The notes under the pieces were generated by a model. It saw only the letters and a program-made list of their open reading frames with translations, had not been told where the DNA came from and searched no databases. The position numbers and the translations under genes were made by a program. A stretch of DNA of 64,000 nucleotides from a virus. The DNA lies in IMG/VR virus record IMGVR_UViG_3300031456_000001, positions 1 through 64,000 of that record; one strand, 5' to 3'. Numbering within the stretch: position 1 is the first letter of the stretch; each line of letters opens with the position of its first letter. Below, in pieces: positions 5,503 to 7,686 of this stretch.

Positions 5503-7161
5503 TCAGCCCTGGTCGACCGCGGTCTCCCACGGCCAAGAGGTATCCTCTCCCCGCTCCAGGTACGGCACCATCTGCAGCGTGCGATCGGTGTAGCCGCCAA
5601 GCTGGTGCCGGTTGGGTGCGACCGTGGACAGGGCGGCGGCCCGGTAGCCCTGCAGGTCGTAGGCGTACAGCGGCACGTGCGCCGGGATGAGCTTCACCGG
5701 ATCGGTTGCGTAGTAGCTGCGGTGCCCGCCGACGGTCTGCATGTCGGACAGCAGGAACACCCGGTCGTGCCCGGCGTACGCCTTGAACGCGGCCGGAATG
5801 TCGGTGCCGTGGCCGCCCTGGCCGGTGGTGGCGAGGAACCCTTCGACCTCGCGCAGCGTCGAGGCGCCCCGGGTCAGCTTGTAGCTGTAGGGGAAGTTGG
5901 CCCAGCCGTACACGTCGGCGCCCTGGCTCTTCGCGAGGGCGATGCCGAGCACCGCGGCGGCGGCGGCCGCGGTGACCTTCGACTTCTCGGAGATGGTGCA
6001 GCCCGTCATCGACCCGGAGGTGTCGATGAGGACGAGGGTGCGGCCGGGCAGCTTCGGCAGGTTGACCAGGGCCACGTCGAGCGCCTTGCCCAAGGGGTGC
6101 CTCCACCGGTCGGACGGCACCTCGACGTAGGCGCTGTAGAAGCGGAAGGGCAGCTGCCGGGACCTGGCGACCTGGGCGGGGTCGGTGAGGCGCTGCGCGA
6201 CCTGGTCGGCGACCTCGTCGGAGACGCCGGCCTCGTCGAAGTTGCGCAGGTTGCGCAGCAGCGCCATGTACCCCATGGACGGGATCATGGCCTCCCACAG
6301 CTTCCGCTTGTCGATCTTGTTCCCGGCGAGGCTGAGGGCGTCCTCCCAGGTCATGCCGGCGGCCTTGAGCAGGTCGGGGTCGGTGAACAGGGCGACGTTG
6401 CCGTGGGCGATCGACTGCCGGAAGTGGTAGTTGGCGGCGACCATGGGCAGCGATTCGCCCTGGGCCGGGTGGCCGTCCCATTCGCGGCCGTGCCGGCGGT
6501 CGAGGGCGTGAACGAACAGCGCCCCCTGCGCGGGGGTGGCCGGCTTCGGGTGGGTGAGGTCGAGGACGTCGGCGAACCGCCAGCCGTGCGAGGCCGTGTC
6601 GTACTTGAGCAAGCTGTACTCGGAATAGAGCTTGCGCACGGCGTCGGCGACACCGCGCTTCACCGGCTGGGGGATCTTCCGGCCGTAGTGGGCCGTCCAG
6701 TAGGCGAGCATCTCGCCGGGCTCGTCGGCGCGCTGGAGGGCGGCACCGATAATCTGCCGAGTGGTGGGGCGGGCGGGCATGGTCAGGGTGTTCGAAGCAT
6801 CCACGGCCCGCCCCGATGCCATCGTACAGGCTCTGGCGGCCTCGGCGGCCATGACGAGCGCCGCGGAGCGCATGTTGGCCTCGCCGCGCAGCCAGCCGAT
6901 CATCCCAAACATCCAGGCCGGGTCGGAGACGGCGACCTTGTGCACGAGCGCCTTGAAGCGGCTGTCGCGGTCGGCGCCCGCCTCGTAGAAGGTGTTTTCG
7001 CCGACCACGTTGGACACGGCGAGGAGGAACAGCTCCGTCTTGGCCTTCTTCGCGAAGCCGGGGCCGCCCTCGTGCGTGACCAGCGTTGGCTCGCCCTTCT
7101 TCGTCTTCATCGGGCCGCGGCCGGCGGCTGCGCGGGTGTCCTTGACGTTGAACTTGCCCAT
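5503..7161 (-). CDS. rsr: Ro60 (TROVE domain) RNA-binding protein
   Basis: 552 aa from an ATG with AGGAGG 6 nt upstream. The first 340 residues form an alpha-helical TROVE region (for example FKALVHKVAVSDPAWMFGMI). A von Willebrand A domain follows with MIDAS residues: LVLIDTSGSMTG near residue 380, the Thr of GGHGTDIPAAF and the Asp of FLLSDMQT. Ro60 is a ring that binds Y RNAs and ends of structured or misfolded RNAs, and in bacteria can be tethered to PNPase. Three Y RNA candidates lie directly upstream on the same strand. A host-type Ro60 operon often also has RtcB; none is here. Confidence 0.92.
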   Translation of the reverse strand: MGKFNVKDTRAAAGRGPMKTKKGEPTLVTHEGGPGFAKKAKTELFLLAVSNVVGENTFYEAGADRDSRFKALVHKVAVSDPAWMFGMIGWLRGEANMRSAALVMAAEAARACTMASGRAVDASNTLTMPARPTTRQIIGAALQRADEPGEMLAYWTAHYGRKIPQPVKRGVADAVRKLYSEYSLLKYDTASHGWRFADVLDLTHPKPATPAQGALFVHALDRRHGREWDGHPAQGESLPMVAANYHFRQSIAHGNVALFTDPDLLKAAGMTWEDALSLAGNKIDKRKLWEAMIPSMGYMALLRNLRNFDEAGVSDEVADQVAQRLTDPAQVARSRQLPFRFYSAYVEVPSDRWRHPLGKALDVALVNLPKLPGRTLVLIDTSGSMTGCTISEKSKVTAAAAAAVLGIALAKSQGADVYGWANFPYSYKLTRGASTLREVEGFLATTGQGGHGTDIPAAFKAYAGHDRVFLLSDMQTVGGHRSYYATDPVKLIPAHVPLYAYDLQGYRAAALSTVAPNRHQLGGYTDRTLQMVPYLERGEDTSWPWETAVDQG

Positions 7162-7185: not shown

Positions 7186-7211
7186 GAAAAACCCCCGCCG
7201 GGTGGCGGGGG
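7186..7211 (-). terminator. terminator after the Y RNA cluster
   Basis: 8-bp stem (CCCCCGCC / GGCGGGGG), 4-nt loop, then TTTTTCG on the minus strand, a strong intrinsic terminator. It separates the Y RNAs from the Ro60 start 25 nt further on, so Ro60 expression would need readthrough. Confidence 0.85.
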
Positions 7212-7223
7212 TTCGCGTTGTGT

Positions 7224-7362
7224 GATGCCCGAGGTCAAGTCGCACTTCCGCACGTAGCTGCTCTGCCATTTGAGCTACACCCCGTCTTAGGGAGCGGCGG
7301 GATTCGAACCCGCATCCTGCCGCTTAACAGGCGAAGTAAGGAAGCACTGCGCACCGGGCATC
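7224..7362 (-). ncRNA. Y RNA candidate c with tRNA-like module
   Basis: The ends pair over 8 bp (GATGCCCG / CGGGCATC). Next comes an internal loop with GGTGCGCAG on the 5' strand and ACTTGACCT on the 3' strand, then an 8-bp stem (GTGCTTCC / GGAAGTGC, two G-U type pairs). Vertebrate Y RNAs have GGUCCGANNG and UUGACU at the same place. Inside are, in order, a CGC-CTGTTAA-GCG hairpin (GTT anticodon loop), a T arm (GCGGG TTCGAAT CCCGC), a weak acceptor-like stem and a D arm (GCTC..GAGC): a tRNA with 3' half before 5' half. Confidence 0.8.
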
Positions 7363-7371
7363 AAAGCGTGA

Positions 7372-7514
7372 ACCCTCCCGAGATCAAATCGCGTCACGGC
7401 GGCGTTTCTTTTACCAATGCTCTGCCGTTGAGCTACCTCCCGCACGAGGCGGGAGGGCGGGGATCGAACCCGCAACCCTCGGAAGTAGCCGATGACGCTT
7501 CGCACCGGGAAGGT
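7372..7514 (-). ncRNA. Y RNA candidate b with permuted tRNA-like module
   Basis: End stem of 9 bp (ACCTTCCCG / CGGGAGGGT). Internal loop with GGTGCGAAG against ATTTGATCT, then GCGTCA / TGACGC. The inner module runs T arm (GCGGG TTCGATC CCCGC), CCTCCCGC, a 5-nt linker, GCGGGAGG, D arm (GCTC AACGGCA GAGC). The 8-bp acceptor stem is perfect but capped by the linker, so this is a circularly permuted tRNA mimic as described for YrlA-type bacterial Y RNAs. Confidence 0.85.
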
Positions 7515-7568: not shown

Positions 7569-7591
7569 CATCACTGCAAGTGGCGTTTGTG

Positions 7592-7666
7592 CCGCCAGAG
7601 ATCAAATTGCCGGTTGGGGTGTTTTTCACCGAAAGAAGTAACCCCGTTTGGCGTCGCACCTGGCGG
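7592..7666 (-). ncRNA. Y RNA candidate a, compact, no tRNA-like module
   Basis: 75 nt. End stem CCGCCAG / CTGGCGG, internal loop with GGTGCGACG against AATTTGATCT, a short GCC/GGC stem, then a stem-loop (GGGGT..ACCCC enclosing TTTC GGT GAAA). It lies 14 nt after the predicted start point of the promoter at 7687-7716. The conserved loop pair ties it to candidates b and c. Confidence 0.75.
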
Positions 7667-7686
7667 TGTGAAGCTGTGTCGTATCG

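What the first reader, a model, noticed from the sequence alone, without database searches (positions are those of the whole stretch)
7224..7514. Circularly permuted tRNA mimics inside two Y RNA candidates
In candidate b the order is T arm, acceptor 3' strand, 5-nt linker, acceptor 5' strand, D arm, with an 8-bp perfect acceptor stem. Candidate c has the same order plus a hairpin with a GTT anticodon loop. This is a tRNA with its anticodon side opened and fused to the Ro60-binding stem. The acceptor end is capped, so it cannot be aminoacylated. Standard tRNA finders would split or miss it.
Basis: seen in the sequence. Interest (0 to 1): 0.8.

Follow-up and report, generated by a model that had tools for sequence, protein, structure and literature searches.

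The report
Ro-bound Y RNAs mimicking whole tRNAs
Next to a phage gene for a Ro60-like RNA-binding protein lie small RNAs that imitate a transfer RNA cut and rejoined in a different order, and one of them belongs to a widespread phage and bacterial set that even carries a tRNA-like anticodon loop, which may make these RNAs tethered decoys for enzymes that act on tRNAs.

Summary
On the minus strand, directly upstream of a TROVE/Ro60 gene (5503-7161), RNAs b (7372-7514) and c (7224-7362) carry tRNA arms in the order T arm, capped acceptor, D arm. This is the known YrlA layout: both are sub-threshold matches to Rfam YrlA (37.6 and 35.3 bits; cut-off 69). The permutation itself is therefore not new.

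What goes beyond the descriptions I could read is c's anticodon hairpin. It is not a one-off. Among 126 dissimilar permuted elements upstream of related Ro genes, 47% have a perfect 5-bp stem with exactly a 7-base loop in the anticodon position (10 ± 2% in re-paired controls). Loops keep U33, follow the 36/37 rule of real tRNAs, and show 26 anticodons. In 6 of 7 groups of close relatives the anticodon differs while the rest is kept. Acceptor caps are enriched in stable tetraloops, so these look like permanent mimics, not permuted genes.

Most likely they are Ro60-tethered, unchargeable tRNA mimics that bind anticodon-arm-reading enzymes, perhaps host anticodon nucleases; this mechanism is inferred. 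The primary YrlA papers were not available, so prior notice of the anticodon arm cannot be excluded.

The parts
5503..7161 (-). Ro60-like (TROVE) protein gene, 552 aa
   Evidence: Pfam TROVE 4e-20; PHROG 850 'RNA-binding protein' 5e-43; relatives annotated 'Ro-like RNA binding protein'
7188..7216 (-). G+C-rich hairpin followed by a T run, directly 3' of RNA c; terminator-like
   Evidence: sequence and weak Rfam hairpin match; the consensus scan did not list it
7224..7362 (-). RNA c: Y RNA with complete permuted tRNA mimic including anticodon arm
   Evidence: model R1 132.6 bits (c was in the training alignment)
7355..7362 (-). c: basal stem 5' strand (pairs with 7224-7231)
   Evidence: covarying helix in relatives
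7319..7335 (-). c: anticodon-like arm, loop CTGTTAA, GTT at 7326-7328
7297..7313 (-). c: T arm, loop TTCGAAT
7278..7296 (-). c: capped acceptor stem (3' strand 7296-7290, 5-nt cap, 5' strand 7284-7278)
7260..7275 (-). c: D arm
7233..7239 (-). c: conserved CTTGACC of the presumed Ro60-binding internal loop
7372..7514 (-). RNA b: Y RNA with permuted T-acceptor-D mimic, no 7-nt anticodon loop
   Evidence: model R1 72.4 bits, E 1.1e-16, not in training
7457..7473 (-). b: T arm
7436..7456 (-). b: capped 8-bp acceptor stem with 5-nt cap
7419..7433 (-). b: D arm
7382..7388 (-). b: conserved TTTGATC of the presumed Ro60-binding internal loop
7589..7673 (-). RNA a: third Y RNA-like stem without tRNA-like domain
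   Evidence: model R1 23.1 bits, E 8e-4; fold z -2.4 for 7588-7685

Best explanation
b and c are YrlA-type Y RNAs of a phage or prophage whose nearest relatives are actinobacterial, made next to the Ro60 homologue that presumably binds them through the basal stem. The tRNA-like end is a tRNA circularly permuted so that its new ends lie between D arm and anticodon arm (tRNA positions 26/27), where the Ro-binding stem is inserted, while the old 5' and 3' ends are joined by a short cap. b keeps T, acceptor and D arms. c belongs to a subtype that also keeps the anticodon arm. Shown by sequence: the architecture, its spread, covariation, tRNA-like loop rules and differing anticodons in close relatives. 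Inferred: the capped, unchargeable mimic, held on Ro60, is bound by enzymes that read tRNA including its anticodon arm. I think the likeliest use in phages is as a competitive decoy or tether for tRNA-cleaving host defence enzymes, with anticodons switching as targets change. Confidence in the identity is about 0.93 and in the decoy step about 0.4.
For: Identity: TROVE next door; RF02553 alignment in the same order; RNAalifold on 32 sequences recovers basal stem, anticodon arm, T arm, capped acceptor and D arm with both-sided changes in 25 of 36 pairs (31 of these rows were pre-selected for a 5/5 anticodon stem). Anticodon arm without that pre-selection: 47% of 126 elements have a 5/5 stem with a 7-base loop against 10 +- 2% (maximum 18%) when 5' and 3' strands of different elements are combined; loop lengths 4, 5, 6, 8, 9, 10, 11 show no 5/5 excess. 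U33 in 81 of 92; 36-37 mutual information 0.66, 0 of 2000 shuffles as high; the same T-A, G-G, A-A, C-A combinations dominate in 177 standard tRNAs of the same loci. 26 anticodons in 100 elements; 6 of 7 groups at least 80% identical outside the arm differ in the anticodon; in close pairs position 35 is the most variable site of the arm (67%; positions 33 and 38, 0%). Caps: YNCG in 43 of 126 (shuffled 16.2 +- 3.6), GNRA in 22 (7.9 +- 2.5). Precedent: the YrlA tRNA-like domain was proposed as a competitive inhibitor of an anticodon nuclease (PMC7790460, passages); a phage tRNA-Lys escapes the tRNA-cutting PARIS defence (PMC11455837, passages).
Against: No experiment shows expression, Ro binding or any target. 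c's anticodon arm is not favoured by single-sequence folding. In PMC7790460 Salmonella YrlA was not cut by the anticodon nuclease studied there, which is compatible with inhibition but is not evidence of binding. 34 of 126 elements, b among them, lack the arm at the 4-of-5 threshold, so it is not needed for every Y RNA; at that looser threshold the controls also reach 46%. Cellular Streptomyces copies include loops that real tRNAs avoid (CTCCACA, CTCATCA); in the cellular subset the 36/37 rule is not significant (8 elements, 227 of 2000 shuffles as high). Variation at position 35 could be relaxed constraint rather than diversifying selection, and the groups are few.
Confidence: 0.5

Rival explanations
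1. Ordinary YrlA function: the RNA gates Ro60 or tethers it to PNPase or to tRNA-modifying enzymes; the anticodon arm only completes the tRNA shape and its letters do not matter.
For: This is the described role of bacterial Y RNAs (PMC8394870 passages: DusA and TruB substrate, Rsr-YrlA-PNPase). b and 34 of 126 elements do without the arm. Anticodon letters vary, as an unread loop would.
Against: An unread loop need not keep U33 or obey the 36/37 combinations of real tRNAs, nor sit on an exact 7-base loop.
Confidence: 0.33
2. Sponge or substrate for anticodon-loop modification enzymes (for example the t6A pathway), changing tRNA modification during infection.
For: Loops ending U36-A37-A38, the t6A type as I recall it, dominate; U36 in 49 of 92 against 64 of 177 standard tRNAs (Fisher p 0.009), C36 in 6 of 92 against 35 of 177 (p 0.004).
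Against: Many loops are of other types (G36-G37 in 20 of 92); switching of position 35 is not explained.
Confidence: 0.12
3. Circularly permuted tRNA genes: the transcript is cut, circularised and trimmed to a working tRNA, as in algae.
For: Reordered elements score as complete tRNAs (105 of 106 called; scores about 108-125), though this partly follows from how they were selected. PMC10085705 (passage) notes that such genes exist elsewhere.
Against: Caps of mostly 3-9 nt rich in tetraloops leave little room for processing; CCA in only 8 of 126 caps; the conserved Ro-binding stem.
Confidence: 0.04
4. Chance pairing or remnants of tandem tRNAs.
For: The descriptor does pick up some genuine tandem tRNAs: 7 of 154 were removed.
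Against: 0 in 200 random windows; native scores 100-106 against about 108-125 reordered; covariation.
Confidence: 0.01

Closest known systems
YrlA Y RNA family (Rfam RF02553; Salmonella YrlA, structure 6CU1 as cited in PMC8394870)
   Same: Ro60-associated, long basal stem, T arm - capped acceptor - D arm order
   Different: Score far below the Rfam cut-off; c and many relatives add a full anticodon arm that the RF02553 consensus and the review passages do not show
Circularly permuted tRNA genes (algae, archaea)
   Same: 3' half of the tRNA precedes the 5' half
   Different: Permanent capped hairpin and Ro stem; no sign of processing to a tRNA
Phage-encoded tRNAs that escape anticodon nucleases (PARIS, T5 tRNA-Lys)
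   Same: Phage RNA with tRNA anticodon arm facing host tRNA-targeting defence (proposed here)
   Different: Those are chargeable replacement tRNAs; these could only bind or compete
tmRNA tRNA-like domain
   Same: Partial tRNA mimic in a larger RNA
   Different: tmRNA keeps an open, charged acceptor and has no anticodon; here the acceptor is closed and the anticodon is present

Membership tests
YrlA-type Y RNA (by architecture) | encoded beside a Ro60 orthologue | tested here: met
   TROVE gene 5503-7161; c ends about 60 bases before its start codon
YrlA-type Y RNA (by architecture) | basal stem with conserved internal loop for Ro60 | tested here: met
   helix 8-13/153-158 covaries in all 6 pairs; strands GGTGCG and CTTGATCTC conserved. 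Protein binding itself not tested
YrlA-type Y RNA (by architecture) | tRNA-like domain with T arm, capped acceptor, D arm | tested here: met
Rfam RF02553 YrlA as curated | score of at least 69 bits | tested here: not met
   37.6 and 35.3 bits; 0 YrlA matches at the cut-off in 15 relatives' loci
YrlA-type Y RNA (by architecture) | pseudouridine and dihydrouridine introduced by TruB and Dus | not testable with these tools
   needs RNA
Standard tRNA | cloverleaf in normal order with open acceptor | tested here: not met
   no ARAGORN call on b or c; RF00005 22.6 bits below 29
Circularly permuted tRNA gene | linker able to be processed to mature 5' and 3' ends | tested here: inconclusive
   5-nt caps in b and c and tetraloop enrichment in relatives argue against it but processing was not assayed
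Circularly permuted tRNA gene | mature tRNA is produced | not testable with these tools
   needs RNA

The most novel reading that the evidence does not exclude
Phages and some bacteria run a switching repertoire of Ro60-tethered whole-tRNA decoys: capped, permuted tRNAs whose anticodon arm is kept authentic and whose anticodon is changed on an otherwise constant scaffold, to capture or block anticodon-specific nucleases of the host.
Probability: 0.3. Interest if true: 0.88.

Novelty: new variant of a known kind. Interest (0 to 1): 0.62.

Why it matters
What the tRNA-like end of bacterial Y RNAs is for is open. A subtype with a genuine anticodon arm that differs between close relatives in phages makes one answer testable: tRNA-reading defence enzymes as targets. 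It also means that tRNA calls beside phage Ro genes in public records can be Y RNAs mis-annotated as tRNAs; six named cases were found here.

Tried and rejected
ARAGORN's 105 of 106 calls on reordered elements is weak support, because elements were selected for all arms; the score contrast with native readings is the useful part. In loci with two or more armed elements the anticodons within a locus differ, but draws from the pool would often give that too, so I make nothing of it. Model R1 hits on c and VanLee are by construction (training rows). R1 also matches ordinary tRNAs weakly over positions 34-113, so only full-length hits were read as Y RNAs. The DNA pattern scan is biased to its own loop and was used only in the descriptive count. 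The census used Ro loci on the plus strand of the window's relatives and the window's minus strand; L088-L090 were not in it. Promoter scan: none. Outside actinobacteria: R1 full-length hits with anticodon arms in Xanthomonas, Caulobacter and Brevundimonas phages; no hit at E 0.001 in the Meiothermus plasmid, SRB7757, phiLo, phiKT1024 and crAss001 loci, 5 of the 8 loci. Not in print as far as I could see: searches; the primary papers (Chen 2014, Wang 2018, two Sim reviews) are not held, so an anticodon arm in, for example, the Mycobacterium smegmatis YrlA may already be described there.

Full report
Setting. The window lies in an 85,079-base IMG/VR virus record. On its minus strand a 552-aa protein (5503-7161) has a TROVE domain (Pfam 4e-20; PHROG 850). 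Its relatives are annotated 'Ro-like RNA binding protein' in phages of Streptomyces, Gordonia and Arthrobacter (39-41% identity for the best). Upstream of it lie three Y RNA-like stems, a (7589-7673), b (7372-7514) and c (7224-7362). A G+C-rich hairpin with a T run (7188-7216) follows c, and a group of tRNA genes starts at 8047.

Checking the observation. b has T arm, 8-bp acceptor closed by a 5-nt cap, and D arm in this order. The unconstrained fold gives exactly these arms. c has the same order, a weaker acceptor (6 of 7, two G-U) and an additional hairpin with loop CTGTTAA. c's lowest-energy fold is another one, 1.9 kcal/mol better than the best fold with the T, acceptor and D arms imposed, and a rival hairpin competes with the anticodon arm. 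Random sequences of the window's composition gave no element scoring as b or c do in 200 windows.

What is known. Rfam YrlA (RF02553) aligns to both with its own structure line, which has T arm, capped hairpin and D arm in this order. The review PMC8394870 (passages read) describes YrlA as a stem that binds Rsr plus a domain resembling the D, T and acceptor arms, a substrate of DusA and TruB, tethering Rsr to PNPase. The permutation and the cap are thus the known design. The score stays below Rfam's cut-off, for the window and for the loci of 15 relatives tested. I therefore file b and c as YrlA-type by architecture, not as members of RF02553 as curated.

Related loci. Searches with the Ro protein gave 38 viral loci, 38 actinobacterial genome loci, 80 viral loci from a profile search, some of the same contigs, and named phage and plasmid records. 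A descriptor (T arm, 5-7 pair acceptor with 3-16 nt cap, D arm with GG) found 154 distinct elements within 2.3 kb upstream of Ro genes on the same strand, credited to 109 locus records (duplicates are credited once, so this is not a prevalence). Seven were ordinary tRNAs and were dropped; 147 remained, 126 after removing those over 85% identical.

The anticodon arm. Without selecting for it, 92 of 126 elements have at least 4 of 5 pairs with a 7-base loop a few bases before the T arm, and 47% have 5 of 5. Combining strands of different elements gives 46% for the looser test and 10 +- 2% for 5 of 5; no other loop length from 4 to 11 shows an excess of 5-of-5 stems. On 32 aligned sequences (31 of the 40 fully paired elements, plus c), the two inner pairs change on both sides in 19 and 15 sequences, and RNAalifold recovers the whole structure.

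The loop behaves like a tRNA loop. U33 is present in 81 of 92, and positions 36 and 37 are coupled (46 T-A, 20 G-G, 6 A-A; mutual information 0.66, 0 of 2000 shuffles). T-A, G-G, C-A and A-A make up 167 of 177 standard tRNAs in these loci. In the viral subset alone the coupling holds (51 elements with 5 of 5, 0 of 2000); in the cellular subset (8 elements) it is not significant (227 of 2000). Some Streptomyces loops (CTCCACA, CTCATCA) are unlike real tRNAs.

Anticodon switching. 100 of the 147 elements have the arm and U33, with 26 triplets. Among groups at least 80% identical outside the arm, 6 of 7 hold more than one triplet. Over close pairs, position 35 differs in 67%, positions 33 and 38 in none, and cap linkers in 36% (pairs are not independent, many are from one Streptomyces group). 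This fits selection for changing anticodons, or a free loop apex; the 36/37 rule argues against a wholly free loop.

Cap. Caps contain YNCG in 43 and GNRA in 22 of 126 (shuffled 16.2 +- 3.6 and 7.9 +- 2.5), CCA in 8. This speaks for a permanent hairpin and against a tRNA precursor.

Mis-annotation. In named records these RNAs are annotated as tRNAs: VanLee tRNA-Arg(tct), GiJojo tRNA-Arg(cct), Alone3 tRNA-Ser(gct), Frankenweenie tRNA-Pro(tgg), SM23 tRNA-Asn and Kikimora tRNA-Ser each overlap a full-length R1 match. 39 of 147 elements have a native ARAGORN call over the T arm, with scores 100-106 against about 108-125 in tRNA order.

Spread. R1 finds full-length matches outside actinobacteria: Caulobacter CcrPW (102.5 bits), Brevundimonas Kikimora (101.7) and Xanthomonas Olaya (100.6), each with an anticodon arm (CTGTTAA, CTGCTAA, CTGTTAA). 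None of these three was in the training set.

Mechanism. Shown: a Ro-linked, capped, permuted tRNA mimic, in many cases with an authentic-looking anticodon arm. Inferred: binding by Ro60; no charging; binding by enzymes that read the anticodon arm. For Salmonella, whose YrlA has no anticodon arm in the descriptions I read, the authors of PMC7790460 suggested that its tRNA-like domain might competitively inhibit an anticodon nuclease (passages). Phage tRNAs defeat the tRNA-cutting PARIS defence (PMC11455837, passages). An anticodon-bearing Y RNA would be a better inhibitor of such enzymes. The plain YrlA role remains a strong rival.

Verdict. The permuted mimic is a known kind; the complete, anticodon-bearing subtype with anticodons that differ between close relatives is, as far as I could check, a new variant. 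The key papers could not be opened.

Noticed in passing
window 7589-7673 (-): Third Y RNA-like stem (a) without a tRNA-like domain, upstream of b; b and c both carry such a domain
   Followed up: partly
L090 (Rhodococcus phage Weasels2), 2968-3109 (-): Permuted tRNA-mimic Y RNA (CTCTTAA loop) with further TACTTC-type repeats, but no TROVE match anywhere in the 134,973-base record; an RtcB gene lies nearby. Perhaps it uses the host's Ro60
   Followed up: partly
L089 (Microbacterium phage SM23): TROVE domain split over two frames (313 and 225 aa open frames) beside a Y RNA annotated as tRNA-Asn
   Followed up: no
L298, L303, L300, L295: Arrays of several Y RNA-like matches upstream of Ro in Caulobacter, Brevundimonas, Rhizobium and Xanthomonas phages
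   Followed up: partly
L303 6341-6686: Permuted tmRNA (RF04321, 57.7 bits) about 2 kb beyond the Ro gene of phage Kikimora
   Followed up: no
L005, L043 and similar Nocardia loci: Ro-binding 5' strand reads CTGGTCCG.AGG instead of CCGGTGCG.AG; as I recall, this resembles the lower stem of vertebrate Y RNAs
   Followed up: no
window 8458-8951 (-): Several divergent tRNAs in the tRNA group: three with undetermined anticodon in ARAGORN and one Cys call with anticodon aca
   Followed up: no
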